A stretch of DNA of 64,000 nt, from the NCBI GenBank assembly GCA_916613615.1, contig OU744732.1, positions 33,999,950 to 34,063,949 of the forward strand, in the 5' to 3' direction. Made by a program: the position numbers and the translations under genes. The notes beneath the pieces are model-generated. The model made no database searches. It was not told the origin of the DNA and saw only the letters and a program-made list of their open reading frames with translations. Shown one piece after another: positions 1,937 through 59,600 of this stretch; within the stretch, counting starts at the first letter, position 1, and every line of letters starts with the position of its first letter. This DNA is from Steromphala cineraria (Eukaryota > Mollusca > Gastropoda > Trochida > Trochidae).

Positions 1937-1940
1937 TTAA

Positions 1941-5744: not shown

Positions 5745-5781
5745 TTAACATCCTTGCATGCTATTGCTTCTCGTGGTTTAA

Positions 5782-6117: not shown

Positions 6118-6121
6118 TTAA

Positions 6122-16056: not shown

Positions 16057-16155
16057 ACAATCGACCCACTGCTACTGTTGTAAGTGACTAGTCGACGATA
16101 ACTAACGTGTATAGACACAAAACAGACATTCGTTCTTCGTGACAGTGTAAACAAA

Positions 16156-19060: not shown

Positions 19061-19105
19061 TGGCCACAATGGATCAAAGACTGCCCTGAAGATCTGAAAG
19101 AATAT

Positions 19106-20161: not shown

Positions 20162-20508
20162 GACTATCACAAACAGCAACAGGCTATCTGGTGAAGAGAC
20201 TAACCTTAGGCCTGTGACACCCAGCCAGAACTGTGTTCCTGGTACCACGGTAACCAGATCTGGTCGTACTGTGAAACTGCCTAAGAGACTGGACATGTGA
20301 CCGCAGTACATGATGATCGGTATTATGAACTGTTAAAGTTTGTTTAAAGTTTAAAAGTTTCTAGTCAAAGTTCAGGGATTGAATATGGACTATAATTTTA
20401 CAAGTTTAATAGTTCTATTTTGCTTATGCAATTAACAAGGACAATTTTGAATTTCATTATAATTATAATGTTCTGTTCATATAAATAATGATTGTGTAAT
20501 CATCTTAA

Positions 20509-21472: not shown

Positions 21473-21753
21473 TTAACAGATTAATGTTATTTACAGCTTC
21501 ATACGTTAGTGTTTTTCTTTTCCTTACGTATTCAAGTGAAAATGTCGTGTTATTTTATTTGTAAAATATATTTTGACAGAAGGTAATTTATGTGCGCTTC
21601 TTCTATTCACGCTATGAAGCTTTTTAGAGTTACCTCCCTTACTGTAGTTCACACATGCTCGCAAGCATGGCGCAGACGTTTTGAAAAATGACGTGATTTA
21701 TTAATCATATTATAAGCACAAAAAGCATTGTACTTCCGAAATGGCAGACGAAC

Positions 21754-22791: not shown

Positions 22792-22799
22792 AGTCAAAT

Positions 22800-24439
22800 T
22801 CCAACACTCTGAAGCTTGAAGCATGGAGGGACCTACTTCCGACTGACGATTTAGATAGAAACTACATTTTATCTGGTGTTGAAAATGGTTTTAAACTGGT
22901 TGAAGATGTAGATAATTTAGACATTTGTGATGTGTTTACGCCAAATCATAGATCAGCATATGATAACAAAGAAGCTGTAGAGACAGTAATTAAGGGTGAA
23001 ATTGAGCTTGGAAACTATGTTTTAACAGACTGTAAACCTACTATTGTTAGTCCTTTCGCAGCTATTCCGAAAGATGGTGACAGTAAAAAGGTACGGTTAA
23101 TACATGATGGAAGCATGCCGATTGGTTGTAACATGAACAGTTATATGGTGAATTGTGGATGTCAATATATGGACTTAAGACATGCTGTTAAATTGATCAA
23201 ACCAGGCTCGTTTCTTTCTAAGGTTGACTTAAAGGCAGCTTATCGAACTGTTGATATTCACCCAAGCAATTATGTCTTAAAGGGTCTGTATTGGAAGTTT
23301 CAGGGGCAAGAGTCAGTGCAGTTCCTTTATGACAAAAAATTACCCTTCGGTGCTTCTAAAAGTTGTAAAATCTTTCAGACTTCCTGATTATAAGTGATAC
23401 TTTAGAAGAATGTAGTGCTCAGCAGCTTAATCTGATTAGAATTCTACGACAGTTAGGGTTCTCAATAAACTGGCAAAAGGTTGATGGTCCGTCTCAAATA
23501 CTCCAGTTCCTTGGCATTGTCATAAATTCCAGCAATTGCACGCTTGCACTGCCAACAGGAAAACTCCAGGAACTATATGACATACTACAGGAATTTTCTT
23601 TGGAAACTCGAGCCAGTAAGAAGCAACTAGAGAGTCTTGTGGGTAGACTGAACTGGGCCAGTATGGTCATACAAGGAGGAAGGACATTTTTCCGCAGAGT
23701 ACTTGACCTCAAGAACTCACTGTTGTCGTCAAACGCTAAGTGCAAGCTTGATGCCGACTTTAAAGCTGATGTTTGTTGGTGGCTACACTTTATGCAGTCT
23801 TTTAATGGGGAAAAACCCTTCTTAGATCAGCGGCCAATTGTGTCTGTGGAAACAGACGCTTGTAATCTAGGATGTGGAGGATATTTTGCCGGTGATTTCT
23901 TTTATGTCAACTGGCAACATGATATGAATGTGGTAGCTTATATGCACATTAACGTTAAGGAAACATTAGCTGTCGTATTGGCTGCATGTAGATGGGGTCA
24001 TGAATGGAGAAACAGAAGGGTTATCGTGTATAGTGATAACCGATCAGCTAAGGCTTTCATTAATAAGGGAAGCTGTCATATTCCCTTGGTGATGTGTTAC
24101 TTGCGTTATTTGTGTTATTTGAAAGCTGTTTATAACTTTTCCTTAACAGTTGAATATGTGCCTGGTCATAGGAATAATCTTGCAGATGCGATTTCAAGAT
24201 TACATGAGCCTGGAAAGTTGAGTGTAGTTTATGATATGATGAGTAGTCTACAGTTGACATCATTTGAAACTGCCCATCTGTGCTATCACATGTCATGTAA
24301 CTTTATCAATTACAGATGGGGCCTCCAACTTTCGACAGATGCTACAGTCGACAGTATCTCGCCTGCAGAGTCAAGGTTGGGCACAGACTACAAAGAAAAC
24401 TTACAGTACGCAAATGAAGTGTTTCTTGAAATTTTGTGA
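22800..24439 (+). pseudogene. Ngaro/DIRS-type reverse transcriptase and RNase H, catalytic deletion
   Basis: The RT begins without its own ATG (about 22800) and runs to 23387 with VRLIHDGSMPIG, LSKVDLKAAYRTVDIHP and LPFGASKSCKIFQT. Immediately after, the frame changes and the sequence resumes beyond the expected YxDD box (IISDTLEEC at about 23391), so the second catalytic aspartate pair is deleted. RNase H follows in frame 23600-24439 (VSVETDACNLGCGGYF, VKETLAVVLA, VIVYSDNRSA). The polymerase of this copy is dead. Confidence 0.82.
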
Positions 24440-25298
24440 CACAGTGCGTATTGAACCCGTGCCTTTGTCTTCGGATGATGTTGCACTTTATATTGCATAT
24501 CTTGTTGATGTAAGAAAACTTAAGTTTGCCAGTGTTAGACAGTATTTGTGCATAATCACCAATCTCCACAAAGCAAACAACTTACAGGATCCTGTAAGTG
24601 ACTGGAGAGTGACGCATACCCTGAAAGGAGTGAAAAGAGAATTGGGTGATTCGCAAATTGGTGCTAATCCTGTTACGCCTGAGCAATTATTGCGTTTGAA
24701 AGACAGACTAGATTGTACTAATCTCCTTGGTGCATCGGTATGGGTTTCCTGTCTATTAGGTTTTTTTGGAATGCTTAGGCCAGGTAACTTTCTTTGTGGA
24801 ACAGAGTTTGACCCAGTGAAGCACATAACTGTGAGTGACGTCATTCTTAACCCCTTGGGATACATTGTCCGCCTAAAGTGGACCAAAACACTACAGTATC
24901 GTGAAAAAATACTTGAAGTATTTATGCCATCTCTGCCTAGAAATTCAATCAACCCCGCCGATGGAGTAGAACAATTGATGGCATTACACAGTGCCCTTGA
25001 TAGTGAAAAGAGCACTTCACCACTGATATGTGGTAGTGATTGTAGACAACTAGGTTATTCTATGTTTATTGATGTTGTCAACTATGTTTTGGATCTGACT
25101 GGAGAGCCTGGGGTCTTGACTGGGCATTCATTTAGGAGAGGTGGAGCCAGCTGGGCTTTTGACATTGGTATACCAGGTGAACTTATTCAAGATATTGGTT
25201 TTTGGAAAAGTAATGCCTACTTGAGGTATATTGAGATAAGATCAGAAAAGAAATTCCAAGCTCTTTCTGACATGGCATGTGGCATTAACAGGGTATGA
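24264..25298 (+). CDS. Tyrosine recombinase of the Ngaro-like element
   Basis: 344 open codons overlapping the RNase H frame in another phase. An N-terminal SAM-like core-binding domain (TTKKTYSTQMKCFLKFC...LYIAYLVDVRKL) is followed by the catalytic domain. The R-H-R-Y tetrad is complete: R172 (FGMLRPGNF), H288 and R291 (TGHSFRRGGAS) and Y319 or Y322 (NAYLRYIEIR). It cuts and joins the circular cDNA at the integration site. This is the only pol-type protein in the window that looks intact. The true start may be downstream of the first ATG. Confidence 0.85.
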   Translation: MKLPICAITCHVTLSITDGASNFRQMLQSTVSRLQSQGWAQTTKKTYSTQMKCFLKFCDTVRIEPVPLSSDDVALYIAYLVDVRKLKFASVRQYLCIITNLHKANNLQDPVSDWRVTHTLKGVKRELGDSQIGANPVTPEQLLRLKDRLDCTNLLGASVWVSCLLGFFGMLRPGNFLCGTEFDPVKHITVSDVILNPLGYIVRLKWTKTLQYREKILEVFMPSLPRNSINPADGVEQLMALHSALDSEKSTSPLICGSDCRQLGYSMFIDVVNYVLDLTGEPGVLTGHSFRRGGASWAFDIGIPGELIQDIGFWKSNAYLRYIEIRSEKKFQALSDMACGINRV

Positions 25299-26690: not shown

Positions 26691-27041
26691 AGGGGCATTA
26701 GCACGTTTTTAGAAAGAAATATTTTCACCGTCAATTGTACGTAAATGCTTAATATATTATTGTAATAGTGTCCAAAAATCTCATTACACGAACCAATCAT
26801 CCATTAGTCAGAGAACACATTATAAAGATTCACATAAAGTCCATTGGCGGCCATTTTTGTGTGAACACCTTCAATTCATTTTGTGTAAGAAAAAAAGATC
26901 GCATGGCTGAAATTTGTATAATATATTTGATTTTTTTACTGCTTCATTTAGTTTATATACATTCGTCTTTTAATTGGAACCATTTAGTTTCTTTTTTCTG
27001 ATTTCACCTTATATTGGCCCTAAAAACATGCTACTGATCCT
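26691..27041 (-). mobile_element. TTAA-flanked MITE, copy 4
   Basis: TTAA lies at 26687-26690 and 27042-27045. Starts AGGGGCATTAGCACGTTTTT and ends ACATGCTACTGATCCT. Interior GGCGGCCATTTTTGTGTGAA. Confidence 0.82.
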
Positions 27042-27059
27042 TTAAAATTGACGAAATTA

Positions 27060-27430
27060 GATATGGAATTTCTTTCTGAAAAAGGATTTAATAATCGTTA
27101 CCAATTTTAAGGCAACTTATCTCAAACAATTATCATTGTTACATTTTTTATTATTTTCTTACCCTTGAAGTATCGGTATTTGGCAATTTTAAAGAGTTGA
27201 GTAAATTTAATAGGTAAATTCTTCGAAAAAAGGATTAACAGTTTGTAATCAATTTCAAGGCAATATATTTCAAACAATAATCACAGTTACATTTTTTTCT
27301 TACCCTTGAGGTAACGTTTTGGCATTTTTTCAGAGTTGAAAAAATTAAATTTGTAATTTCTTTGGAAAAAAGGATTAACAGTCGTTTCCAATTTCAAGGC
27401 AATATTTTCCAAACAATAAAAGGTATCGTT
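27060..27430 (+). repeat. About 2.5 tandem copies of a 150-bp unit
   Basis: Each unit carries GAAAAAAGGATTAACAGT, AATTTCAAGGCAATAT, TCAAACAAT and TTTTCTTACCCTTGA.GTA. The copies are moderately diverged. Confidence 0.75.
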
Positions 27431-27434
27431 AGGC

Positions 27435-27590
27435 GAACTAACCACAGGAACTTGATATCGTAAATAAAATGTAGATAGAACAAGGGTAAGAAAGACCTAC
27501 CTACAAATGTACATGTACATAGTGGGGATACTTTCTTACCCTCGATTATCCTACTTTTTATTTACGATATCAAGTTCCTTTTGAACTAAC
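27435..27590. mobile_element. Short hairpin element with 8-bp duplication
   Basis: AGGAACTTGATATCGTAAAT at 27446 is mirrored by ATTTACGATATCAAGTTCCT ending at 27579, with an inner pair GGGTAAGAAAG / CTTTCTTACCC. GAACTAAC flanks both sides (27435-27442, 27583-27590), an 8-bp duplication as made by hAT-type elements. The superfamily is inferred. Confidence 0.65.
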
Positions 27591-28740
27591 ATATTTCGAT
27601 CAAGGTTAACCTACGCAAATAAATTTCCCTAGTTCATCAATTAAAAGTTGTTCACATTAAAATGGCTAACAGCACTTTTAACTTGATACTTGTTTTTTTC
27701 TCTACGACTACGAATGAAAGGAGTAAAGAGAAGTTTTACCATCTGGAGATAATACAATTCGAATAAGCTAAAAGTGATTTGGTAAAATTTGGAGAAATCG
27801 AATTTAAAACAACAACAACCAAAAAACAACAACAAAAAACACAAAAATAAATTATTTGCTATTCGGATAAGGCACTGGTGGGTGCAATGCATAGTGCAAA
27901 CGAACTTAATCTTTCTCAGTGTCTTTATTGCTTAGGATTAAATGTCACAACTGTTTACTGACTTCCCGAATGCCTTGTCACGAATTGATATATCACGACT
28001 CTGCAGGCCTGCTTAAAGGAACGGTCCTATCGAGGTATTTTTGTGGACACAAAATTCAAGAGTACTCACTGTTTATACTAATATGTGGTTTTAACATGAT
28101 TATTTCTCACTTCAAATATTTTAATAAGTATAACATTTAAGTTGTTCTAGATTTGACAATTTGACGAAGAATATAGAAAGCATCACCTGATTAATGTTTG
28201 CTCTTAAATTTTCGTTGCCACAAACAAATACCCCGATTGGAATGTCTCATAGACATTTGAAGACATTTTCATTTACTTACTTACCTATAAATGCAATGAA
28301 GAACGTAATATCATTCTTATTGACCTGAAATCAATAATGAAAAAGCTTCGTTGACCGAAGTCAACTAGGGATATCGAAAATTTAATGAATGACTTTGTAC
28401 AAAACGGAAAAATACAACGGCTGGTCTATGACTACGTTCAGCTTTTTTTTCATTTTGTAATTTCCTTACCGAAAACAAAGAATGAATTATTCTTTTAAGA
28501 TATAGCTGCAACCTCAATAATTTCTTATACACTGCATAATCGCACGGGGTACCTGAGCAATAATGGCTGACGTTGTCGGGTTTCCGGGCTGTACGCAAAA
28601 TCTTGATATTTGCCGATATCAAAGTTCATGCGGTTTTAATGCAATGTTACATCCAATCCTTTGGATCATTTCGAATTAACTGTATGACTAGACTACGTCA
28701 AAAAATATACGAGGTAATTTGCCTTAATGTGGATCTTTAA

Positions 28741-29096
28741 GGGGCAGTAGCACGTTTTTTGATAATTTTATATTTTGAATATTTCACTGATAATTGTAAG
28801 TTAATGCTAAATGTATTATTTTGACAGTGTCAAAAGTCGCATTACACAAGCCAACCATCCATAGTCAGAGGACAAACTATGAAGATTCACATAAAATCCA
28901 TTGGCGGCCATTTTGTGTGAACACCTTTAATTCATTTTGTGTAAGAAAAAAGGAATCGCATGGCTAAACTTTACATACTATATTTGAATTATTACTGCTC
29001 CATTTAATTTAAGTACATTGTCTATCAATTGAAACCATTAATTTTCAATTACCTGACATCACCTTATATTCCCCCTAAAAACGTGCTACTGCCCCT
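28741..29096 (-). mobile_element. TTAA-flanked MITE, copy 5
   Basis: TTAA lies at 28737-28740 and 29097-29100. The left end has lost one A (TTAAGGGGCAGTAGCACG). The right end is AACGTGCTACTGCCCCT. Confidence 0.85.
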
Positions 29097-29100
29097 TTAA

Positions 29101-32692: not shown

Positions 32693-35600
32693 GTGAGTGT
32701 TTTTTTGCTTTGCGAATGTCCAATTGCAAATGTAAACAAGTCATTTTTAGGATAGTGAGAGATTTTATTTCAGTAAAAGGGCCACAGGCCCATTAAACAT
32801 CAGATTGTACACATATTGTAAACATACATTTTTAGGATACAATGATATGAGAAATCCTGTTTATGCTACAAAAGTAATATTGGTAAGCAGATGTTATCCT
32901 GTGATTTCTCTTTATCAAGAAAATGCCTGCATGCTAAGTAAAAAAACTCACTAGTACTTGTTCGTAATTCAAACGTTAATTTACCCGAAATTTAGAGTTT
33001 AAAGACAACATCTTTTAAATGTACGACTTTTTTTTATCAGCATGAGCAATTTTTAAGGATTTTATAAAGGATAGTTATAAAATGAATCAATTACTTACCA
33101 TGATCTATGTCTAACTGTTATGATATATGTTATATATACGAATATGAAATATCATGTTTTACTGTTTTTACATATGTGGTGACATATACGAATATGAATG
33201 TCTTAAGGACTACATTTTGATGTTTTTAAATAATTCAACGTCATCCTTATATCAACAACAAGAAGTAAAACAAGCCTTTTGACTATTTATATTTGCCCTA
33301 TGGAAATATTAGATAATATATTCAGCAAATTTGAATTAGAAATACTTATAAATTAGAAATTGACGCAGAACAGAAAATAGATAATCTGTGCATATAGATT
33401 TACATACACAATTAAAACACAACTTTGGTATGGCGTAGGTTTTTCTTCCCAAAAAACTTAATATCCAATTTGAGTGATTCTTTTTTCCAATTATAATCAC
33501 TTATCAAAGTCCCTTATATTTACAAATGAAAATATTATTTGAAAGCCTTTTCTAGAATGTTTTTAAATAATTTCATAATTCATTTTCATAATTATCCCGA
33601 ATTATACACTTGTTTAATTTTTGGGGGTTTTTTTTGTAAAAAGTAAACATTTTCAACATACAAGTGAACATAAATCAAAGGCATACTGTAGCGATCTTCC
33701 AGATGTACAGACCTTTGCTTTAAAGGGGCAGTAGCACGTTTTTTGATAATTTTATATTTTAAATATTTCAATGATAATTGTAAGTTAATACTAAATGTAT
33801 TATTTTGGCAGAGTCAAAAATCTCATTACACAAGACAATCATCCATAGTCAGAGGACAAAGTATGAAGATTAACATTAAATCCATTGGCGGCCATTTTTG
33901 GAAAATGGAATCGCATGGCTAAACTTCACGCTATATTTTTGCATTATTACTGCTTCAATTAGTAAGAACCCTTGCCTTCTTACAATTTCTCAATCGGGCA
34001 ATTTACTTTATATTTCGCATACACTTATAAATTAATCTCTTACAATACTACCCTGGCCTGAACAAATACAGAGTTGGAAGTTAAGTAAGCTTAAATAAAC
34101 AGCCCCAAACACTCCCCATTGACACTGAAAACCACCAGCGTATTATACGGCAATGGAATACGCAGAAAGATGCATGTAATCGGTTCTCCAGTTTCGGACT
34201 CACAATGAGAAACTGGTTATTTGATTCCGTTGCGCAATCTATTTGCACTACATACCATTCAGGTCAAAAATGAGCTAAGGTCAAGGCGAAACATGGATAC
34301 TAGAAACAGCAATTTTCTTGCAACTAAAAGCATCAAAACTATGATATATTTCGATTGATAGTAGGCTACTTCTAAGATAACTAATCTTCTGAATTTAAAG
34401 CATTTTCTATCATTAAAAATTAGGTTCAATATAAAATTAATGAATTTTGTCATGATTTTATCAATATTTAGATAAATACATTTCCTGCTTTCCATAAAAT
34501 TATTGTTTATTAGATAATATCAGGGGAATGCCTTTCAGAAGTTGAAATATGTTTCATGTTACATTTCAAATTTGAATAATCACTCAACTCTTGTTCTTCC
34601 TTACAAAGATAAAATTCTTCCGTACCATAAACTTGTGTTATTCAAATTTCTGACATTTACACACTTTATAAGCTTGTAACTAGAACTAATGACACATGAT
34701 AGTTTTCCAGAATAATATCCTTGATCAACGAGTTATGTCATGAATACAATCAGTCAGTCTGTCGAGTTGTTGCTTAAATAATGATTGAATATATCAAATA
34801 AAATGTGATGAAAATTTGCTTTGAGATATTTGACCTCAAAAGAAGATACTATTGACATTAACTTTTATTTGTGAAAAAAAAGAGGAAATAAACTCTAAAA
34901 ATAGCGCAGTACTGCCCCTTTAATTTATCGCTCTGTGCTACATATTTTCAGGCGCGTATAATGCTGCCTTGACAATCCTTTATGTTTGACGAACCTTAAA
35001 GCTCCTACTTTCGTTTTCAAAGTGCGTAGTAGGCATCAAGGAAGTAAGACAGGCCCGTGCAAATATCTGTCTATATTCTCATACATGTATATTCAAGTAT
35101 GTACATAAACACACCCAGGGGACGGCGCTAGTTCAGTAGTTGTTAGAAACAGATAAACATCCTGGTTTATAAAAATTCATATTTGCATTAACGAATTTTA
35201 AAAACTGCTTTTATTGAACTCCTCACGGCTCGTGTATTTTGATTTTGAATGAGGTGTTCAACTAAGGAAAGATTTTATGCAGTATCCATTTGTCATGATT
35301 TGAAAGTATTTTGTCATTAAATAGAGGGTGACATTTAAGAAGATTTAAATATTATTATGAAAGGACTCTTTTATCATACCTTTGATCACATTTCGATCTT
35401 AGCTGAGTGAATATTATATTCAGAAAAATATATTCATATAAACTTAAACAATTCACTCTAATGTCATTCATAAAGTGTTATATATATTTTTTTAAAGTAA
35501 AAAGTAAGTCAAATCATCACGTATAATAACATCCTCATCGAATTAAGATTTTTAAATTGAACGGAACAATATTTACAAATGCGCGTTATAAAAATCACTT

Positions 35601-38600
35601 GTGGGAACGAGTTTTATGTGCAATTCGTGTGTGAACTTCAAAACTTCAAAAGTAAACATAAAAGATGGGACGTTGACAGATGCATGTACATTTCAGCTTG
35701 TTGCACGTGCAGCATGACTTTCTCGGACTCAGCACTTCATAGTGAAAAGAAATACCACCCATTGAAACTTACGCTTTCATCACCATGACAACAAAGCATG
35801 CATAGTGAATCAAGAACTTAAAAAATTATCTAGCTTTTCAGAAACCAAGTCCCGTGTCGTTTTCTTTTATTATTATTTTTTTCGTTATCAAAGCATGTTA
35901 CCATACATCAATAACAATAACCATATCAAGCGATCTACACGACAAACAATGCTCTGCTTGACAAACACTATCTTGCCCAAAGCTAAATCTTTGTTAAGCA
36001 AGTTCGTATAATGGGCTCATTTTACTTACAAATATGTCCTAATTGCTCGGAGGCATGGCAAACATGTCCGGCTCTTGTGGAAAACGTTTCAACGACTTTG
36101 GAATTTATTTAAATTTTAAAACGAATTTGAGTTTGCGTGCTTAGGACAAAATAGTACACACCACATTTTGCATTTATTTATTCAATATCTAGAAGACCCG
36201 TGACTCTCACCGTGTTTAGAATTTGTCAACGTGTTGAGAATGTGGCTCTTCCATCGATTTTCAACACAGAATTTATCTTTTAAGTCGATATACAATTGAA
36301 TTTTATCAAAATTAATTTTTCAAAAAAATAGTTTTATAAAAACATTGGATTTTAAATTAAACATGAGTGATGATTAATCTTGTATAAGTACTTTTCAGTT
36401 TTAGAGTAAACAAAATTGAAATGTAAATTGAAAAACATACATGTGATAACACCAACCGTGGTGCAAACTTGCATTTGTACCACAGTTTATGTAAGCCAAT
36501 TAATATATTTAAATAATAAATGTAACAGTTGCTGACATACAATAATCATTGTTACCGCTTCTTCCAAAGCAAACAATTACATATTCATAATCGTTGAGGA
36601 TATATAAATAGAAATGCTATTGTGTATTTTCTAGAAGCCACACCCTTCTTCCTGGATATCCCTATGGTTACAACAATTCAGGCCATAATGCATTTTGTTG
36701 ACTGTATGAGTTGTCTCATTTGTGTAAAGAGCCACTCTGTGATCTTTATCCTATTTTAATTTGCTTTTGGTATTTTAAAGGGGCAGTAGCACGTTTTTTG
36801 ATAATTTTATATTTTGAATATTTCACTTATAATTGTAAGTTAATGTTAAATGTATTATATTGACAGTGCCAACAAACTAATTAAACAAGCCAATCACCCA
36901 TAGTCAAAGGACAAAGTATAAGGATTCACATAAAATCCATTGGCGGCCATTTTTTGTGAACACCTTTAAATCATTTTGTGTAAGAAAAAGGTGTCGCGTG
37001 GCTAAACTTCATGTGATATATTTGAATTATTGCTGATTCATTTAGTTTAAATACATTGTCTTCCAGTTGGAACCATTTATTTTCATTTTCCTGACATCAC
37101 CTTACATGTATATGCCCCCTAAATACGTACTACTTCCTCTTTAATGGTATGGTTAACTATATAAATTAAAAAACTCACAAATTCATCTCAAAATGGCAAT
37201 TATACGATAAATAACAGATCATATACAGTATTGACATAGTTTAGAAAGATGAAAAAGACCAAAGAAAGGCAAATGACAAATTAGAAAATTAAATCACTCG
37301 CCATAATATGTAATAGTGTAAGCAATATTGAATTATCGTTATTTCACATTTATGCATTATATACATTATTCGTATACACCTCTTTGCCGTTTCAAATGAT
37401 GTTTTTGGTTTAAATATATCGTTCTACACAGTATTCAAATTCATTTGTGAAGATTTTTTTTAAAGATTAAATAAAGTGATCGTACGAAAACAAAATTAAT
37501 TCCATAAATTGCAAGGCAAGGTTTGAATCAAAAGGAATATGTCTTGAGTAAAGTTCTGATAAAATGTTGAAATGTAGAAATAACAATATGAATGATATCA
37601 AATTTTAATTTACTCTGTCTAAAACACGTCTTTGTACTTGAATATTGAAAGGGGCAGTAGCACGTTTTTAGGGAGAATATAAGGTGATGTCAGGAAAATG
37701 AAAATTTATGGTTCCAATTGAGAGACAATGCATTTAAACTGAATGGAGCAGCTATAATTCAAATATATAATGTAAAGTTTAGCCATGCGATTGCTTTGTC
37801 TTAACCAAAGTGAATAAAAGGTGTTTACATAAAATGGCCGCCCATTGATTTTAGTTGAATCTTCATACTTCGTCCTCCGACTATGGTTGATTGGTTTGTG
37901 TAATGAGATTTTTGACACTATCAAAATAATACATTTAGCATAAACGTTCTATTATCACTGAAAATTTTAAAATATAAAATTATCTTAAAACGTGCTACTG
38001 CCCCTTTAAAACATATCTAACAAGCCCCGTCATGTCAACGAAGATATGAATTAAGATCAATATATATTGTGAAAACTAAACACTTGAAACCCCATGGAGA
38101 ATCCTAGCCTGTTGTTAAATTTACATGCACATAAAGACATGGATATGATAACAAAAGTAATTGTACATGCATATTAAGGCATTGATATAATAATAAAGGT
38201 TCATTATATATCATTCAAATGGAAGACACACTTATAAGAACATGCTTTTATCATTGTGATAATGACACGAGGAAGTGTGTCATATGACGGCAATATAGTG
38301 TGAAGCTTTGTAATAAGGATGCGCGGTATTATCGATATATCGGTAAATTGCAATACAGGAACAATGTGATACGAATCGGTACACACTTTTAAAATTATCC
38401 AATTATTTTAAAACGAGCTATTTCCATCTAAAATTACTAACAAACACAAACAAATGTAACAAGATTTACGTAAAGTTCGTTTAAAAGTGTGAAGTTGTGA
38501 TGTGAATATAGCTCAAATATATATACAGACCAATAGTGATTGAAAAAATATCCTTTCCAAAACGGCCCATAGCTAAAAAATGATGATCGCTCTCAACGCT

Positions 38601-41600
38601 CATATTTAAACAAGATAGCATACAAATCCTTGAATTAAAGAAGTACCAATATATTGCAATGCAGAAAGGAGGAACGTTACCCATTCTTACTTTGTATTAC
38701 CCGAAGGAAAGCGAGGGTTATACACAGTCATACACGGGTTTTCGTAAAATTCATATGACACACATCCTCTTACGATAACTTCTTTATTACCAATTCTATT
38801 CCATATAATTATTTTAGAAATATCCACTTAAAGGACCTTTCCCTCGCAACGGTCGGCTACAGTGTCGTCAAAAACATTTTCTTTTAACGCCACAGGCGCT
38901 ACACAAACGTTGTTAGGCAGAAGTATCATGTGCACATGTGCTCATATTGAAAATATGTCATTACTTATTTGCACATAATAATCATTTACATGAATTCCAA
39001 ACATATTACATATATTTATCCCTAAATTGCAATTATATGATAAATTCTTGTTTTGAATGAAACTCTTATTGTAGTCATACATATTCGTAAAATCCAAATT
39101 CAGCAGTCAAATTTTCATTAAATTAACAGTCATTCTGACTGCTTTAAATAACTTTCAAAATTAGTTAGACTGATTGACGCGCGTCATTGTCCGGTTTTCG
39201 ATTGTAACCACGACTTCAACCTTTACAATGTTACTGTTTAATATCGTTTTGACTCTTAAAGGGGCAGTAGCACGTTTTTAGGTGTAATATACGGTGATGG
39301 AAGGAACATTAAAATGAATGGTTTCAATTGAAAGACAATGTATTTAAACTAAATGGAGCAGTAATAATTCCAATATATAACGTTAAGTTTAGCCATGCGA
39401 TACCTTTTTCTTACAAAAAATGAATTAAAGGTGTTCACACAAAAATGGCCGCCAATGGATTTCATGTGAATCTTCATTCTTTGTCCTCTGTCTATGGATG
39501 ATTGGCTTGTGTAATGAGATTTTTGACACTGTCAAAATAATACATTTAGCATTCACTTACAATTATCAGTGAGAAATTCAAATAATAAAATTATCAAAAA
39601 ACGTGCTACTGCTCCTTTAAATGATACAACAATCGATACTTCTTATATTTAGGATAGGAAATAACACAATTTATGAAGTTTTGCATATGTAACCCCCAAC
39701 AACTCATGGATTTAGAGTGGCTCTTAACCTTTTTCATCACAATGTTCCCATATGGGGACGTGTCCTTCAATCTCCTGTAACTTCTTTTCGTATCAATAAC
39801 ATTACGTTTTGCTTTGGCCATGTTGATATTGAAATAATTACCTACAATGTGGTAAGTAAAACCAGCTTGTGAATTTTTCATCTGCAAAATGGTGATTTCC
39901 CAAAAATGGATACAAATCCGTTTTTAGACAAAAAAAAGTTTATAAATAACTGTATACATGATATTTGAAATATTGTGAAAAATGTTAAGTAATTTTTATA
40001 TGAAAGAAAATGATGCCGCTATACTCATACAATAATAACTTTGTTAGAAAAGTAATATACAACGCAGATAAACTATTAGATAATAAAACTTCCGTGACAG
40101 AACACGATCTACAATAAAGACATCTCGTGACTTATTTACAATGTACAGTTAACCTATACTGCGCGAGTGTAACCACAGTAGACCCACGGCAATATCTCAT
40201 TACCAGACTTCGTACCAGGAACATAGACAAGATCGACACCCTATTTATTCCTCTTAGCAGATTGTTTTCACTGTACAAATCAAAATATATGGCTTCTAGA
40301 GCACTAGAGGCCAACATAAGTAGTATGTCATGGTAATGCATCAACATGAAATTGACAACAAATGAAACAAAAAAAATATTTTTTTTATGAAATACACATC
40401 CCGCTCCCGAGTACCTTGCTTTTATTACATATACAAAACACTCCCATAACGTTAAAAAATATATGACAGTGATTTATATCATCGCATATTTTCTTATATC
40501 GTGTATCCATTTAAAACAAATTATATCATAAATATAAGAAATGATCGTATATGTTCACACTAAGAATGCTATATGATATCGAATATTTTAAATCAATGTC
40601 TGGTATGCTTAAAGAGAGAGTCCCTATGGCTATTATTCCGTCATTTTATTTTTCCTTGATGTTCAAAACAAATCTGCTTTACCTACACTTTTATTGGTTT
40701 ATATATATTATATAAGAATATTACAAATTTACAAAAATAAACGATAGGAGTTATCATATTTACCTTTTATTCCCCGAGCAATGTAAAGTGTAGTCTATGC
40801 TCGTATCGCTAATGATTGATGTCATTTCACAACGTTGATAATTTTGAGTAATGCGCGCAATTCTTAAAGGGGCAGTAGCACGTTTTTTTTCAAAATTTTA
40901 TAGTTTCAATTTTTTCACTGATAATTGTACGTTAATGCTAAATGTATTATTTTGATAGTGTCAAAACTTTCATTACACAAACCAATCATCCATAGTCAAA
41001 GAACAATTAACAAAGATTCACATAATGTCCATTGGCGGTCATTTTTGTGTGTACACCTTAAATTCATTATTGAGTAAAAAAATGAATCGCATGGCTGAAC
41101 ATGATATATTTTATTTATTAATGCTTCATTTAGTTTCGATACATTGTGTTTCAATTGGAACCATTTATTTTCATTTTCCTATCATCACCTTATACTCCCC
41201 CTGAAAACGTGCTACTGCCCCTTTAAGAGACAAAATCAGTATTTTATGTTAGCTTACTTATATGCCTATAACGATGTTTGTAAATACTATGCAGTTTCTT
41301 CGAATTTCGTAATTCCTTCGGTTAGAATCCACCTAACAAACTCTTCATGGTAAAAGATGCATCACATTATCCAAACGATCGCACAGTAAAGAAGTGTTTA
41401 TGATGTTATATAGCGTTAATTGTTTCTCTGATTTTATTCATTTTGCTTGTCTCACATATCTGCCATATTAAATCAGAGACTTCGAGTTTTTCTTGAGAAG
41501 CCGTCTTTACTGATTTTTATTCGCAATCTATGTTTTTTAGCATTCCGAGAAAACAAATCTAATGTATTTTCCTTATTTATAAACAAAAATAAACAACTAA

Positions 41601-50600: not shown

Positions 50601-53600
50601 TGTACGTGTGTGTAGGTGGTAGATTGCTTTTGATAGAGTAATGTTGATGGTGTTTACCGTTGCAATGAATAATAGCCATATTCATGTACAAAGCATTTAT
50701 AAGAGTTTTCAATAAGGGAACACAAAAATTACTTTACATAATATCTGGATGATGCTTTATTGCTTCGAGTAACTTTATTTATATTATTTTGAAAGGTTGA
50801 ATTTTACTTTTGAAGAGTTCAGGTACATAAGATTAAAAATCGAGATCAAAATGACAGAACAATGAGAAGGTTGGATTTTATTTTTAATGACTTCAGGTAA
50901 ATACATTTAATAGGCGAGATCGACATGACAGAACTATAAGAAGATTATAAGAGAAGAAATGTTACATCAATAATTTTACCTAACTTAAGCTATAATATTA
51001 TTTACATTTATGGTATGCATAAAGCGTGTAATTCAAAAATGTTTTCATTTAACCTTTTACATGTAATATTCATTGACCACATTATTACGAAATCAACTCT
51101 ACAATTTTTTTATTGACAACTATACTTTTAGATTAACATTAGCAATCCTTAACACATGACACAATCTTAATATACTTTATCACTTCATCACAGTAATCCT
51201 ACCTTCACAATAGTAAATAATTATTATGTATGATATAAAATAGTTACACTTTTAAATAAAATAAGATAATCTACAAACAAACATATTAAATATTAATATA
51301 TATAATCCTATATATTACAACATTATCATATAAACCACCAAAGAAGAAATAAAATATCAAATGCAAAACATAATTGATACACACTTACCATAAAGCAGAA
51401 AGACGTCCTTTCGAATCTTTAATGTATTTATCCATATGAATTATTTAAATAAACTGACATCAACATAAAATGAAAACAACAGAAAATTGCAAAATACAAA
51501 TTATAAAACCACATGTAACTTAGGTAACACTGAAATGAACAAGCCAATTACTCTGCACGTGCGCGGCACTTCACACCACACCACGACCCAAGCATGATAT
51601 CCGCACATTGTATCTCGGCTTAGACAGCTGACTTAGACAATTTCAATCACGGGATTCCACATACTCACCGGACCAACATCATGCAAATGAAGGTAACAAC
51701 CACACTTTTTATACATTTCCTTCTTCCTTTTTATGTCTCCCCCCGAAGGGTCGGGAGACATATTGGTTTTAGCTGAGTTCCCGTCGGCGTCGGCGTTCCC
51801 ATTTCGTTTCCGGAGCATATCTCTAAAACAATGTGACCTATCATCACCAAACTTGGTATACTGTATCTCCATATCATGTAGATGTGCCTTTTGGAAGTTA
51901 TAGATTTCTTAAAATGTAATTTTTTTTTATTTCCATGGCAACAATTTGAACTTAGTCTTTTTCAAGGTTAGTGTTCGTTTCCGGAGCAGATCTCTAAAAC
52001 TATGTGACCGATCATCACCAAACTTTGTATACTGTCTCTCAATATCATGTAGATGTGCCTTTTGGAGGTTATAGATTTTTTAAAATTTAAATTTTTTTTA
52101 TTTCCATGGCAACAATTTGAACTTTCAGTCTTTTTCAAGGGTTTCAGCATCAAATCATATAGAATTTTGAATCTTTTGTTTGCTACAATTGTGGAGTTGA
52201 TAGGTTATTTATTCAAGTTGAATTATACAGAGAACATTCATGGTGCTTTATGATAGTATTGTTTAGAGGTTTGGAGCATTTGAGGAAGGGGGAGACATCT
52301 GTTTTTACGGGTAAAAACACTTTCTAGTTACATTCTGTTTCTACTTTCACCTCCAAAACTGCAAAACTTTCTCCATACAATAATCTTTATCCACAACAAC
52401 AGATCCTTCATAACACTAACTTACTGACTAACAATCCAGATTCAACATCCACCATGACGCACGATACGATTAAAATATTATCGTCAAATTGTCAAGGCCT
52501 CAATAACAAACGTAAGCGTACAGACGTGTTTCGAAATCTTAAAAACAAGAAAGCACATATTTATTGTATCCAAGACACTCATTTTACAAAGGAGTTAGAA
52601 AATAAAATCAAAATTGACTGGGGATCAAAATACTGTTATTTTAGTTCTTATAAAAGCAATGCCAGAGGGACAGCTATACTGTTTAATAATAATAATTTTG
52701 ATTTTGTCATTGAAGATTCCAAATGTGTCGAAAAGGGAAACTACGTAGCATTGAAAATAAGCATTATGAATAAGACATTAACTTTGATAACAATATACGG
52801 GCCAAACACTGATGATCCAGACTTTTACCTCAAAATTATATCAATCATTAATGAATTGCAGTCAGATAGCTTTTCAATATGCGGAGATTGGAACTTTGTA
52901 CAAGATCCCAAACTAGATTATTTTAATCATAAAAATATTAATAATGCGAAAGCGAGAGAAACCTGGCTAGAATTTATAGAAGAAAATGATTTAGTAGACC
53001 TTGAAGAGAACAAAATTTAGAGAGCCAAAGATATACTTTGAGGCCAAAAAAGCCTATGAAACAAGCAAGACTTGATTACTTTATCATATCAAAAAACCTC
53101 GAAAGTTCAGTTCAGGATACTGCTATTGGGGCAGCATATAGATCTGATCACTCAAAAATTTGGATTCAATTGAAAATAAGTAATATAGAAAGAGGTAGAA
53201 GCTACTGGAAATTCAATAATTCTTTACTTCATGATAAGACATATGTAGATGAAATAAAACAAATAATAAATAAAACAAGAGAACAATATAAATCATACAT
53301 AGATGAAACAGGAAAATATGTTTTCAAAATAAATGATCAATTATACTTTGAAACTCTTATTAATGATTCGAGGGCATACCATAAAATATTCATCATATAA
53401 GAAAAAGGAAAAGCGTAAAGTAAAAGAGACGCTTGAAAAAGATATAGATAACCTGGACAAAGAAATAGATCCATTGACGGATATAAGTCTTAAAAACAAT
53501 ACTACAAAACAAATTAAAGGAATCAAATAAAGAATTAGAGACTATTAATAAAAGCGAAATAGACGGTATAGAAGTCTACATTAAATGCTGTGACTATAGA

Positions 53601-56600
53601 TGATGGTGAAATAGAAAGAGTAACAGAATACAAATATTTTGGTACTGTCTTGGATTCAAAACTTTCTTGGAACGAAAATACTGACAAAATTTATAAGAAA
53701 GGACAGCAACGCTTGCATTTTGTGTGGAGATTGAGACATTTTAAAATAGATCAAACTATATTGAGGTTATTTTACAGAACATTTATTCAAAGTATCTTGA
53801 CCTTTAATTTCTTGAGCTGGTACGGAAATTTGTCTGTTCAGAATAAAAACAAACTTTCAAAAATTGTTAAAACAGCTTAAAAAATTATTGGACTTCCAAT
53901 TGAAAGTATCGGCGATTTTTATGAGCAGCAAATTTCCAAGAAAACAAATAAAATTTTAAGTGACCAATCACATATTCTTTTTTCGGAATATTCTTGGCTA
54001 CCTTCAGGACGCAGACTGCGCATGCCGACTGGGAGAACAAACAGGTTTCGCTACTCTTTTATTCCAAACAGTGTTCGTTACTACAATGAGCAGTTTATTG
54101 ATTAATGTTATATATATGTTTTAGTCAAGTGAATGTGAGTGTGACTTAATCGGATGTGTTCATGTTTATTTAGACAAATCTTATGCATAATAATATTATC
54201 ATGTACATTTAGTTTGCTTTGTTTGTAACTGAAGAACTCTATATATGATGTAAAACAAATTTCCCTTGGGACAATAAAGACATTATCTTATTATCTTATC
54301 TTATACTGTTACGATCTAAAGCTAAATGGAAAGAAGGTGAGAAACCAACCAAGTTTTTTCTATCATTAGAAAATAGACATTTTTTTAATAAGGCCATATA
54401 TAAACTAGAAAATAATCAAAGTGAAATAGTAACCAAAAAGGAAGATTTGATTCATGAAACTAGATCGTTTTATCATAACCTATACCAAGCAAATCCACGC
54501 GAAAACGTTTACCTTTCAGAATTATTTAAAGACACTGAAGTCCCAAATCTGTCTAAAGAGCAAAAGGATAATTTAGAAGGTCCATTGAAATATGAAGAAG
54601 TATTATGTAGCCTTAAAAAAATGAAAAATGAAAAAAGCCCAGGGTCTTCCGGATTTACTGTCGAGTTGGTCAAATATCCATGAATACCTGATAAGGTCTT
54701 TAAATGTAGCTTATAAATTATCATTGACCCAAAAACAAGGTGTTATAACTTGTTTTTCCAAAAAAGGTAAACCAAAACACTTGCTCCAGAATTGGAGACC
54801 TATTTAGATGCTCAACGTTACATATAAAATTGGATCATCAACTATAGCAAATAGGATAAAAGCTGTCCTACCTTCTATAATAAACGAAGACCAAAAAGAA
54901 TTTATGTTCAACAGATATATTGGAGAATGTACTCGCTTAATATATGGGTGGAATTCAAAATTGGTAGGTTTTTCTGTCCGGTCCAATTTAAAAAAAAAAT
55001 AGTGTGTCTTTTAGGGATTTTTTGTTCTAGAAAATATATTTAGCCATTGACAAGTACATTTTCGTGATCAACCATTAATTTTTCCATTTAAATTTTTTAA
55101 TTTGATAACATTTTAGGGTCAAATTTGGCATATTTACTCTGTCCTGAGGTGACGGTCCTCATACAACTTATACAAAATATCATACAAATAAACATAATCA
55201 AACAAAATAATATATTTTATTCTTATAACCATTGATCATGCATGTACAAACTGCATTAAATTTTGTATTGATTTCAAAAATAAAAATTCTACAAATTGAA
55301 ACATGCCTGTCCTGAAATTTTGTGTCCTGACCGTTACCATGTAGATATTTCCTTCAATAATTTCCCCCTGGAACTGGATTGGAATTCTATTTGCTGTGTC
55401 TGATTGACAAATGCTCTTTGCGTATGACAGTTAGTGAAATAAAAGGATTCGGTACATTTTGCAAAAATATGATACCAACAAGCATGTATAAATATGATGT
55501 GTCACCCTTAAATGTCCAGACCGTTACCGTTGGATTTTGTGCATTTGTATTCTCCCTTTGTCTCAATAATAATGAGCTTTGTTGCTCAGAACTGGAAGAT
55601 GGGGAAGGCATGTCCTTTGACATCTTTAAGGGATCATTCATTGTGTTATTTTAAATTATTTACAAATTGTCCTGGCCATTACCGGTCCTGACCGTTACCT
55701 TTTTACAAAGTAACGGTCAGGACAGTTCTGGTAACGGTCAGGACAAACACATTTTTATTTGGAGAAACTTACAAAGTTATTCATAAATATTTTAAGAAAT
55801 ATTAATAATGAAATTATTTTAAGATCATAAATTGTTTAGGCTTGGGAGTTTACTGTTCAGAGTAGTTTTAATGAAGTGGTTTTAAAATAAAAGTTTTGAA
55901 GAAACGGTCAGGACAAATAAATAGTAACGGTATGGACATATGTCAAATAAATTTTCTTTTTGAAGAATATTTTCTGAGGTTAGTTAGTGAATTTTTAGTT
56001 ATCTATTGAATATTAATAGCAGAAACCACTACATATATTTCTGATAGATGTTTTTATTTTTATGAGATAATTGACAAAGAAAACTATGGTAACGGTTTGG
56101 ACAAAATGTGCAAACTGTATGGAACCATATCAGAAATAAATGCAGTTGCCTGTGTAGCTTAATCATTTGTCACAGTGTGCAGTTTGATAGTTGTTGCAGT
56201 ATCTTTCAGAATTCTATTCTTTACAAGGTATACAATGGAAAAAAAATCTTGGTATTTACACAGATGTCCTGACCGTTACCAAAAATGTCCTGACCGTTAC
56301 CCCTCATTTACTTGATTGCCAAAAACACTTTTCTTTCAATAATAATTAGGTGTCAAAATCAAGACAATGTGTATTTGTATTCTTTACAAGCTTTAATCTG
56401 TTAATATTAAAAAGTACAAATTTATTTATAAGTGTTGTTGTTGATTTCATAACAAATGTCCATACCGTTACCATGGCAGTGAACAAAATATGCAATACAA
56501 TCTAAAATTTACCATGTCTAATTCACATTTCACTTTTTGTTCAAAATAGAGTTAACAATAAAGTTAAAGAATATTTATTTGTATCTTTCATGTTATGTCT

Positions 56601-59600
56601 CTATAGTGAATTGAATTGAAGAAGACTTATGTCCAGTCCGTTACCATACATGTCCCGACCGTTACCAGTTCTGTCCCAGCCGTTACTGGAGCTAATTGAC
56701 TTCTCTAATTAATTCATGATAATACACGAAGCTCTCTTCTTTACGTAGATGTCATCTAAACGTGTTCTCGGATTAGCAGCAGATGCTTATTTGAGATAAT
56801 TTCACCTATTGAAAACTATAAACACAAAAGTTTCTGAGAAAAATGCGATTAAATTGTGTTAAACAATGAAAAGATACAAAAAAAGGACTTTAAAGATTAA
56901 TTACAACAGTTTTTACCTTCAAGTGTCATTTATACAATGTAAAAGATGTAAATGCCATCGTTGAAAGATTTTTCTTAATTTTAGTTAAAATTCTTTTTTC
57001 TGATTAAGAAACGGTAATGGTCAGGACATTTTCCTCCCGTTTAATTATGTTTCCACTAAAATTTTAATTGGTACACTTGAGCCTGACTGTTTGTATTTTC
57101 TCATAATCAAGTGTTTGCCAATTTATTTGAATAAAAAAATAATCCTTTTTGAGGAGTTTATTTTGACCATTATGAGAAATTGAAAATCCTACCAATTTTG
57201 AATTCCACCCATATGATATCATTGACTATACTGATTCTGTGCAAATTCCAGGTATTCTACTTCTTATTGACTTCGAGAAAGCATTCGATTCTGTTGACTG
57301 GAACTTCATTCAAAAGGTTCTGGAATTTTTCAATTTTATGTCATCTATTATGAGATGGATAAACACGTTTTTTAATAACATTCAATCATGTGTTGTAGTA
57401 AACGGTTTCCTCTCAAATTATTTTACATATCCAGAGGATGTAGACAAGGAGATCCTATATCTCCATATATATTTCTATTATGTGCTGAAGTCCTGGCAAT
57501 AATGATAAGAAATAATCCAAAGATTAAAGGTATAACCATTGGAGATACTGAATATCTTATTTCTCAATACGCTGATGATACCTCACTTATCTTCGATGGT
57601 ACTGAAAAATGCCCAAAGGCGACTTTAGAAACACCGAAACACTATGCTTCATTTTCAGGATTAAAAATAAATGTAAACAAAACCAAAGGTATTATGCATA
57701 GGCGCTGCGGAAATCTCAAAAAGAAAACTTTGTCTAAACTGGAATTTAGACTGGAAGAATGACTCCTTTACACTACTCGGAATCATATTTACCCACAATG
57801 TAGCAGAAATGGTAGAACGCAACTATAAAGATAAACTTAAAACCTTTAAATATATCTATGAACCAGTGGATGGCTAGAGAAATAACTCCACTAGGTCGCA
57901 ATACCATTCTTAAAAGCTTACTTTTACCACAAATCAACTATTTATTTGCAACTTTACCAAACCCAAGCGATCAAATGATAAGAGAAATTGAACAACTCTG
58001 CTGCAAGTTTATATGGAAAAACAAACCCAACAAAGTTAATCGTGACACTATCACTAACAACTATGAACAAGGCGGAATAAGGCTTCCAGATATAAGAAGT
58101 CTCATTCTATCACACAAAAATTCATAGATGAAAAGATTTAACAACTCTGCTTCAAAAATAAAGACACTGCTACAAACAAGCATTAAAGGTAATATATACA
58201 GCCTTATATATTATACAAACATGTGAAACACACATAACCGAATCTTTAATAACAACCCGAACAAATCACTTTTGGAGAGACACATTAACATCGTGGGGCA
58301 AATTTATTAACAAAAAAGGTCAAAACGCTAAAAACGCCGACGATGTCTTATCACAACCCATTTGGCAAAATGAAAATGTCAAGATAGGTGGAAGACCTAT
58401 CAATTATAAACATTACTCCTGTAAAGGGATCACTTACATAAACGGTCATATTTTGTAAAAAGAAGGGTTAAATTGGCAGTGGTATTTTCTTTTCAATATG
58501 AACGTTTATTGACTTGCCGTAATATTTTATAGCTTCTATTATCCCTTGGTAATCAAGGAAATTTGTCTTGCAACCAAAAGTATTTCTTAATTGTTCCATG
58601 GATAGGAAATTACCATGGCTATCAATAATGTCGGCGATCCAAAAGGCTTTAGAGATATATATGACATACTCATAAACAGAAAAAGCACAAAAACTCTCAA
58701 ATACCGAGATAAATGACAAAAAGATCTAAATGAATTTATAAACGAAAATACATGGGAAACCATAGAAAGATTAACATTTAAATCCTACAATAGTGCTAAA
58801 CATTCATGGCTCCAATATAGTATATTGCATAAATTTTTTCCAACAAATGAGCTAACAAAAATGAGATACAAAGAATCAAACAAATGCACATTTTGCAAAA
58901 CAGAGAATGGGTCAATTCTACATATATTTTATGATTGTAAGTTTACCAAAACTATAATATGGAAAAAATTGAAAGAATGGATACTTGAAAAAACAGGAAC
59001 CTATATCATATTTTCTAAAAAGAATATCATCTTAGGATATACTGAAAAGCGAAACTATGTTCTGAATTTGCTGACAACCATTGTGAAATACAATATATTT
59101 AAAATGAAACAACAGGAGAAATCCCAAACGTTAAACATGTACAAGAGGAAATTAAAACTGCATATTTTGTTGACCGAGTTAACGCCTCCACAAATATGAC
59201 AGCTTTATGAATTTCTGGTCAATTTGTCATTATCAAGTCTGAATTATTAGATCAGTTTTTAATATCTACTATTTACCACCCAATGTCAGATTGAACTTTG
59301 AATATAAAATTGTCTATTCATCAAATCTTGTGTACGTTGTTAATATAAATTGTTACTTTTATATACGTGTTACAAGTTTGTTATGTATGGAATTGTTGTT
59401 CTTACGTGTCCTTTTTCTGTATGGAGGTTTGAAAAATTAAAAATTAATTTTTTTTTTTTTTAATTGAAGGATAAACATGTTCTTAGTCGTCATTGTAATT
59501 GCAATAGAATATAAATGATGTTAAATCATCATTTAAGTATTAATAAGACACTCTTTAGCAAAATAAAGCCAAATTAATGATAATAATAAGAAGAAGAATG

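What the first reader, a model, noticed from the sequence alone, without database searches (positions are those of the whole stretch)
54942..57214. TIR element C carries sixteen copies of a 16-bp motif in both orientations
Seen: 23-bp perfect TIRs, ATAT duplication, and sixteen near copies of TGTCCTGACCGTTACC (ten plus, six minus), often in pairs 16-21 bp apart. The variants keep TGTCC and CCGTTACC and change the three bases between. Inference: the motifs are binding sites for an element-encoded protein or a zinc-finger factor. I cannot assign this arrangement to a known transposon superfamily. It may be a non-autonomous member of an undescribed family.
Basis: partly seen in the sequence, partly recalled or inferred. 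Interest (0 to 1): 0.82.

Follow-up and report, generated by a model that had tools for sequence, protein, structure and literature searches.

The report
Jumping genes with fixed-geometry binding-site arrays
This is a gene-less jumping element, present in many copies in a mollusc-like genome, that carries a strictly spaced array of short binding-site-like motifs; related families keep the motif and much of the spacing even where the DNA in between no longer looks alike, which makes the protein that reads this layout worth finding.

Summary
Observation confirmed and extended. The window holds a 2,265-bp element with perfect 23-bp TIRs and sixteen TGTCC-N3-CCGTTACC sites (0.38 expected). Flanks of the sites are unrelated to each other; sites fall in nine clusters at a ~188-bp rhythm, often paired at 21 bp. 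The host assembly (1.27 Gb) holds 151+147 TIR matches and 719+727 exact motifs (control 29). Of 31 elements read, 27 have identical 4-bp target duplications, including AGGT, ATGT and GACT. No coding relative was found, in an incomplete search.

New: sister families with their own TIRs and motif variants keep the layout, C and D at both ends: first site 374-379 bp from the left end, then about 190/155/16/25/21/170 bp; a 21-bp triplet 336-341 bp before a last inverted site 177-186 bp from the right end. 12 (C) and 11 (D) of 14 sites coincide, although the DNA between is largely or wholly unrecognisable. Within families the motif changes about two- to fourfold less than its surroundings.

Best reading: non-autonomous DNA transposons whose arrays dock a trans-acting DNA-binding protein in a geometry-constrained, perhaps nucleosome-compatible, complex. 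Superfamily unproven (4-bp duplication fits Sola2); protein unknown.

The parts
54942..54945 (.). left copy of the 4-bp target duplication, ATAT
   Evidence: 4-bp nature from other copies
54946..54968 (+). left terminal inverted repeat, GGGTGGAATTCAAAATTGGTAGG
54946..57210 (.). whole element, 2,265 bp; longest frame wholly inside is 97 aa, without a relative
55140..55157 (.). degenerate half-sites (TGTCCTGA plus at 55140, GACCGTCAC minus at 55149), near the next beat of the rhythm
   Evidence: no site listed there in the sister families
55308..55315 (+). half-site TGTCCTGA just before the first full site
55323..55338 (+). site 1 TGTCCTGACCGTTACC, 377 bp from the left end
55513..55528 (+). site 2 TGTCCAGACCGTTACC
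55668..55683 (+). site 3 TGTCCTGGCCATTACC
55684..55699 (+). site 4 GGTCCTGACCGTTACC
55709..55724 (-). site 5 TGTCCTGACCGTTACT
55730..55745 (-). site 6 TGTCCTGACCGTTACC
55900..55915 (-). site 7 TGTCCTGACCGTTTCT
55923..55938 (-). site 8 TGTCCATACCGTTACT
56088..56103 (-). site 9 TGTCCAAACCGTTACC
56265..56280 (+). site 10 TGTCCTGACCGTTACC
56286..56301 (+). site 11 TGTCCTGACCGTTACC
56457..56472 (+). site 12 TGTCCATACCGTTACC
56630..56645 (+). site 13 TGTCCAGTCCGTTACC, first of the right-end triplet
56651..56666 (+). site 14 TGTCCCGACCGTTACC
56672..56687 (+). site 15 TGTCCCAGCCGTTACT
57013..57028 (-). site 16 TGTCCTGACCATTACC, 182 bp from the right end
57188..57210 (-). right terminal inverted repeat
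57211..57214 (.). right copy of the target duplication, ATAT
52328..59199 (+). old LINE (endonuclease, reverse transcriptase, zf-RVT pieces) into which the element inserted; the reverse-transcriptase frame closes across the empty site

Best explanation
The element is one copy of a non-autonomous TIR DNA transposon family (4-bp target duplication, no gene) in a clan of at least four such families in this genome. Its 16-bp motifs are docking sites for one sequence-specific DNA-binding protein, most likely the transposase or an accessory protein of an autonomous partner that moves these elements in trans. The layout is fixed because the protein must assemble a nucleoprotein complex of set geometry: neighbouring sites 21 bp apart (two helical turns, same face), clusters about 188 bp apart with 139-174 bp of free DNA between (one double gap of 325), which would fit a nucleosome core between bound clusters. 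Shown: multi-copy mobile family, 4-bp duplication, motif and layout conservation across families, family-wide concerted motif variants. Inferred: that a protein binds, that it serves mobilisation, that nucleosomes occupy the gaps.
For: Copies: 151+147 TIR matches, control 0; 719+727 exact motifs, control 15+14. Full copies are about 96-98% identical to the window copy. Identical 4-bp flanks in 27 of 31 elements read, seven different sequences. Motif edges are sharp: in-register flank identity 0.2996 against 0.3026 in the null; 90 comparisons between different inter-site stretches give mean z 0.17 and one above 3. Rhythm: R 0.96 at 188 bp, 0, 0 and 1 of 2000 nulls; spacing CV 0.069 with the largest gap dropped, 0 of 100,000; site level 1 of 3000. 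Substitutions: motif 31 of 4279 against 504 of 32,996 elsewhere in 17 copies not chosen by motif; family D core 139 of 2265 (0.061) against 1999 of 18,770 (0.107), middle bases 0.028, CpG 0.072 against 0.246. Layout: 12 of 14 (A-C), 11 of 14 (A-D), 11 of 12 (C-D) sites at the same end distance and strand; null means 0.52-0.75. The same stretches do not align A-D in 6 of 6 tests, and A-C and C-D only in part. Family-wide variants: last base A in 18 of 22 sites of C, fifth base A in 17 of 19 and 18 of 20 sites of two D copies.
Against: No autonomous element, transposase or binding protein found. The four TIR pairs longer than 3 kb in the capped list (100 of 298 places shown) are the element with extra DNA; of the two longest, L040 has no frame of 100 aa and L039 none above 145 aa; the extra DNA of L023 and L041 was not examined for frames. 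Sites fill the whole element rather than only its ends, unlike textbook subterminal repeats (recalled). The twofold drop in core substitutions is modest; in family D motif cells are gapped more often than others (0.063 against 0.029), and two of 13 loci show little or no reduction (L063 0.060 against 0.069; L070 0.087 against 0.069). One pair of flanks (55513 and 56286) is 30 of 60 identical. The ~10-bp AT periodicity in the gaps, a possible nucleosome signal, is weak (15 of 300 shuffles as high), and no chromatin data exist here. Family C rests on one locus and B on two.
Confidence: 0.62

Rival explanations
1. The sites bind a host chromatin or transcription factor (zinc finger, Myb- or RFX-like), and the element is a mobile insulator or regulatory platform, as gypsy is with its Su(Hw) sites. 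Selection then acts on expression or on silencing escape, not on the transposition complex itself.
For: Same conservation evidence. Precedent: 12 zinc-finger sites in the 340-bp gypsy insulator (PMC2374998, passages). The motif contains TAACGG and GGTAAC, which I recall as Myb and RFX half-sites; no call tested this.
Against: The motif changes in concert within each family (last base A in C, fifth base A in D), as expected for a factor co-evolving with the element; a host factor should hold one consensus. Both element ends have their own conserved layout tied to the TIRs.
Confidence: 0.2
2. The array is a decayed satellite-like tandem array (about 160-190 bp units, as in bivalve pearl/HINE elements) in which one box, like a CENP-B box, is still conserved. 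The rhythm is a relic of unit duplication, not a working geometry.
For: Unit length is satellite-like; 160-180 bp monomers make up 51% of the monomers in oyster tandem arrays, many of them in mobile elements (PMC7492417, passages). Stretches of the family D locus L038 about 190-380 bp apart are still 65-69% alike over 278-449 bp, and its middle has more units than the window element.
Against: No similarity between units of the window element, sites in both orientations, and spacing kept within a few bp across families where sequence is gone. A relic should drift in length. This may explain the origin of the middle of the array but not its maintenance.
Confidence: 0.13
3. The shared layout is only common ancestry and the motif similarity is drift or gene conversion without function.
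For: A and C keep detectable similarity in two or three of 6 stretches and C and D in one, so they do share an ancestor.
Against: A and D show none in 6 of 6 while 11 of 14 sites coincide; motif substitution rates are lower within two families.
Confidence: 0.05

Closest known systems
CACTA (En/Spm, Tgm, Tam1) elements with subterminal repeats bound by TNPA-like proteins (PMC2613891, passages)
   Same: Short motif repeated in the element, family-specific motif variants, non-autonomous derivatives moved in trans by a separate DNA-binding protein plus a transposase.
   Different: Here the TIRs start GGGT/GAGT and not CACTA, the duplication is 4 bp and not 3, the sites run through most of the element at a ~188-bp rhythm, and the layout is kept across families.
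Sola2 DNA transposons (PMC3627910 and PMC10741241, passages)
   Same: 4-bp, often AT-rich duplications, ATAT among those reported; TIRs; Sola2 is present in bivalve genomes (PMC10294476, passages).
   Different: No transposase here to test; no motif array is mentioned in the passages I read.
Pearl/HINE elements of bivalves (PMC7492417, passages)
   Same: Gene-less mobile elements of bivalves with repeats of about 160-180 bp.
   Different: HINE are Helentron-type with sub-terminal inverted repeats and homologous tandem monomers; here true TIRs, a 4-bp duplication, and units that share only a 16-bp motif.
gypsy insulator with 12 Su(Hw) sites (PMC2374998, passages)
   Same: A mobile element carrying an array of one protein's sites in AT-rich DNA.
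   Different: 340 bp in a retrotransposon 5' region; no ~188-bp rhythm described in the passages read.
EBV oriP dyad symmetry element and EBNA1 (PMC3798644, passages)
   Same: Paired sites 21 bp apart centre to centre.
   Different: A viral latent origin; analogy of spacing only, no relationship.

Membership tests
Non-autonomous TIR DNA transposon | terminal inverted repeats with target-site duplication in many copies | tested here: met
   TIR 151+147, control 0; identical 4-bp flanks in 27 of 31 elements read
Non-autonomous TIR DNA transposon | no transposase gene | tested here: met
   longest frame wholly inside is 97 aa, without relatives or Pfam match
Sola2 | 4-bp, AT-rich target duplication | tested here: met
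   ATAT 17, ATGT 3, AGGT 2, TTAT 2, AAAT 1, ATAA 1, GACT 1 of 31; 4 of 31 not identical. A feature shared with other superfamilies
Sola2 | Sola2 transposase in the autonomous partner | tested here: inconclusive
   no autonomous relative among the loci whose frames were listed (L039, L040, L071, L073, L074); genome searches for relatives of families C and B and for the generic site pair did not complete
CACTA | TIR starting CACTA and 3-bp duplication | tested here: not met
   TIR GGGTGG or GAGTC; 4-bp duplication
piggyBac / Kolobok | TTAA target duplication | tested here: not met
   no TTAA among 31
Tc1/mariner | 2-bp TA duplication | tested here: not met
   AGGT, GACT, AAAT duplications
Pearl/HINE (Helentron) | sub-terminal inverted repeats and homologous tandem monomers; no target duplication of this kind (last part recalled) | tested here: not met
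   perfect TIRs, 4-bp duplication, no similarity between units
CENP-B-box satellite (recalled) | tandem homologous monomers carrying a conserved box | tested here: not met
   no homologous monomers in the window element; the CENP-B box itself was not searched

The most novel reading that the evidence does not exclude
These elements carry a chromatin-scaled transposition code: a motif-binding protein occupies linker positions between phased nucleosomes, and the element ends are recognised as a nucleoprotein array of about 188 bp per repeat, so that selection preserves the lengths between sites to a few base pairs long after the sequence has been erased. The protein's specificity and the motif co-evolve family by family.
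Probability: 0.27. Interest if true: 0.88.

Novelty: new variant of a known kind. Interest (0 to 1): 0.74.

Why it matters
Arrays of protein sites in transposons are known, but a site layout kept to within a few base pairs between families whose intervening DNA is no longer alignable gives an unusual natural readout of geometry under selection without sequence under selection. It makes two questions testable: what protein moves or uses these gene-less elements, and whether a transposon's end recognition is built around nucleosomes. The several motif variants offer a natural series of co-evolved site and protein pairs.

Tried and rejected
Two-bp TA or AT duplication (mariner or ISL2EU type): possible from the window alone, rejected by AGGT, ATGT, TTAT, AAAT, ATAA and GACT duplications. 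Decayed tandem repeat as the whole explanation: rejected. Hairpin between clusters at 56540-56610: it stood out in the self-comparison but folds no better than shuffles (z 0.11). The first alignment of 25 copies mixed both strands and its motif figures are void; it was redone with strands turned; the duplication tally does not depend on it. Relatives in viral contigs, GTDB contigs and plasmids: patterns of the TIR, of two adjacent sites and of an inverted pair gave nothing or lone hits; the single exact motif gave 11 viral stretches, and each of the 12 viral loci holds one match only; the blastn table was cut at 40 lines and showed three of these loci; the plasmid search gave one 43-bp match; the two GTDB TIR hits hold a single TIR-like site each, in DNA of 50% and 60% GC. 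A predicted-protein search with the longest frame found nothing. Longer TIR pairs as autonomous elements: not supported (frames of L023 and L041 not examined). In one search loci L064 and L076 are the same place and were counted twice. Among the 31 elements, L028/L054 and L055/L056 have the same flanking letters and may be duplicated segments; without one of each pair 25 of 29 duplications are identical.

Literature: none of four DNA strings (motif and TIR, both strands) is in the papers held. One search, for evenly spaced arrays in non-autonomous DNA transposons, found no paper holding four of its six terms. The listings (titles and starts of abstracts, capped) showed me nothing of this layout, but I read passages of eight papers only. 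Most subscription papers are not held, so novelty is claimed only against these searches.
Full report
What is there. Window 54946-57210 is a 2,265-bp element with perfect 23-bp terminal inverted repeats, flanked by ATAT on both sides. It lies in an old LINE: joining the flanks without the element and one ATAT gives a reverse-transcriptase peptide that reads through in frame. The joined peptide scores 41.9 bits for RVT_1, the right flank alone 25.4 and the left flank none. It has 263 relatives, of which 120 are listed, and the 15 that I aligned run across the junction without a gap. The surroundings are mollusc-like: the best named relatives of a sulfotransferase gene in the window are from bivalves and other molluscs (the top five hits are unnamed). 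The species is not known.

The motif. Sixteen copies of TGTCC-N3-CCGTTACC lie in the element and none elsewhere in the window at up to 2 mismatches (16 found, 0.38 expected; 22-31 bits against 10.4 for the next best place). Nine of 16 columns never vary, and the three middle columns hold 14 of the 22 departures. The copies have sharp edges: flanks in register are no more alike than chance (0.2996 against 0.3026; 237 of 300 nulls as high), and 90 comparisons of different inter-site stretches give mean z 0.17 and one above 3. One pair of flanks, 55513 and 56286, is 30 of 60 identical. So the array is not a recently decayed tandem repeat. Half-sites occur at 55140 and 55308 (two exact TGTCCTGA against 0.07 expected from the rest of the window).

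The rhythm. Sites fall in nine clusters with centres 176.5-213.75 bp apart and one double gap of 362. The Rayleigh statistic is 0.96 at 188 bp; 0, 0 and 1 of 2000 random placements reach it for three minimum spacings. Free DNA between clusters is 174, 139, 154, 149, 161, 155, 157 and 325 bp. With the largest gap dropped, a broken-stick null never gives so even a spacing in 100,000 trials, and a site-level null does so once in 3000. Within clusters 21 bp is the usual step (4 of 7). The free lengths are close to a nucleosome core (147 bp, recalled); that is an inference, and the only sequence hint, a ~10-bp AT periodicity, is weak (15 of 300 shuffles as high).

The family. The host assembly answered late. 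It holds 719+727 exact motifs against 15+14 for the reversed pattern and 151+147 TIR matches at up to two mismatches against none. Eleven loci of this family on one contig, found by motif, and twenty chosen by TIR were read; one, L030, has a single TIR. Full copies are about 96-98% identical to the window copy. Of 31 elements with both TIRs, window copy included, 27 have identical 4-bp flanks: ATAT 17, ATGT 3, AGGT 2, TTAT 2, and one each of AAAT, ATAA and GACT; 4 do not match. The non-palindromic ones exclude a 2-bp duplication, which the window alone could not. The four TIR pairs longer than 3 kb in the list (100 of 298 places shown) are this element with extra DNA inside: L023 and L039-L041. 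L040 has no frame of 100 aa and L039 none above 145 aa; frames in L023 and L041 were not listed. No coding relative was found.

Constraint inside families. In 17 copies that were not chosen by motif (16 chosen by TIR plus the window copy), the motif has 31 substitutions in 4279 cells and the rest 504 in 32,996. With all 25 near-full-length copies the core rate is 0.0074 against 0.0149, the middle bases 0.0035, and at CpG 0.0167 against 0.0678. The TIRs show almost none, but most of these copies were chosen by TIR. In family D, compared at 3-20% divergence in 13 loci (one place counted twice), the core is 0.061 against 0.107, the middle bases 0.028, CpG 0.072 against 0.246. Against this reading, motif cells in D are gapped more often (0.063 against 0.029), locus L070 shows a core rate (0.087) above its surroundings (0.069), and L063 hardly differs (0.060 against 0.069).

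Sister families. Nine of the 100 motif places listed were outside family A copies. The five loci holding them (L034-L038) hold 5 to 17 near copies of the motif each, many of them 21-22 bp apart, though blastn finds no more than one 60-bp match to the element, in L038. Family C (L071, 3,916 bp) has TIR GAGTCATTCTCAAAATT and ATAT flanks. Family D (L038, L072 and others) has TIR GAGTCAAACTGCTGAAGA; three of the four D loci with both TIRs found have ATAT flanks, and the fourth, L063, does not match. Family B (L034, L035) has a left end GGGTCAATTTC, and its right end was not found. L037 was not placed.

The layout, in bp from the left end, is 377 | 190 155 16 25 21 170 23 in A (counted from site 1; the scorer also calls a weak site 202 bp in); 377 | 191 156 15 24 22 173 21 in C; and 379 | 191 156 15 25 21 173 21 in D copy L038. 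At the right end it is 21 21 341 | 182 in A, 21 21 340 | 186 in C and 21 22 337 | 186 in D copy L038. D copy L072 departs in the left cluster (374 | 347, 46) and has 21 22 336 | 177 on the right. B has 373 and nearly the same total to the inverted pair (387 against 386 in A) but other inner steps (169 22 171 25). With the same scorer, 12 of 14 A sites match C, 11 of 14 match D (L038), and 11 of 12 C sites match D within 6 bp and on the same strand; circular-shift nulls average 0.52-0.75, and 4, 3 and 13 of 5000 reach the observed values, near-zero shifts included. That scorer also gives 41 hits in 61.6 kb of other window DNA, so single weak sites may be chance. The middles of the elements differ between families.

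Yet the stretches between these sites do not align between A and D in 6 of 6 tests (largest global z 1.95). A and C are recognisable in two or three of 6, and C and D in one. The families therefore share an ancestor, and the lengths have outlived the letters. The motif differs by family in a concerted way: last base A in 18 of 22 C sites; fifth base A in 17 of 19 and 18 of 20 sites of two D copies.

Mechanism. I read the array as docking sites for one protein that serves mobilisation in trans, with geometry fixed by the complex it builds. Precedents are TNPA-like proteins on subterminal repeats of CACTA elements (PMC2613891, passages), the 21-bp pairs of EBNA1 (PMC3798644, passages) and Su(Hw) sites in gypsy (PMC2374998, passages). 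Multi-copy mobility, motif constraint and layout conservation are shown; the protein, its role and the nucleosomes are inferred. The middle of the array probably grew by duplication of ~190-bp units: the D copies have more units, and stretches of L038 are still 65-69% alike.

Placement. 4-bp AT-rich duplications, ATAT among them, are reported for Sola2 elements (PMC3627910, passages), Sola elements carry 4-bp duplications and variable TIRs (PMC10741241, passage), and Sola2 occurs in bivalves (PMC10294476, passages). This is compatible, not proof. CACTA, mariner, piggyBac/Kolobok (TTAA, PMC9587614, passages) and HINE are excluded by ends, duplication or repeat type. I rate it a new variant of a known kind: a gene-less TIR transposon clan with a geometry-conserved internal site array.

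Noticed in passing
window 9726-11885 and 13796-14095: A second motif array: about 8.5 copies of a 196-bp unit (94% matches), then 29-bp sub-repeats, with 21 near copies of TATGACCAATATCAACC (17 plus, 4 minus, up to 3 mismatches), the minus ones on the far side, and a 20-bp inverted pair at 11394/14095; a sulfotransferase-like gene (PF03567, 12655-13686) lies between.
   Followed up: partly
window 1937-6118, 26699-29100, 33719-41229: Many inverted copies of TTAAAGGGGCAGTAGCACGTTTTT, apparently a TTAA-type miniature element family.
   Followed up: no
window 7927-8366: 14.8 copies of a 30-bp unit, in a frame open for 163 codons.
   Followed up: no
window 21697-25298: DIRS-like retrotransposon frames (a weak RVT_1 match and an integrase SAM-like domain of the phage-integrase kind); gypsy-like frames at 16102-20300.
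   Followed up: no
G000 C32:17.85-18.14 Mb: Several family D copies lie within 300 kb of each other, 72-78% identical to the query over their longest matches, an unusual local cluster.
   Followed up: no
L036 3518-4133 (L071 3418-4033): A tandem repeat of about 168 bp with an open frame sits inside the family C element.
   Followed up: no
search hits P0027 and P0062: Proteins named as from the bacterium Thiolapillus sp. are 54-59% identical to this host's LINE reverse transcriptase, so those records may hold animal DNA.
   Followed up: no
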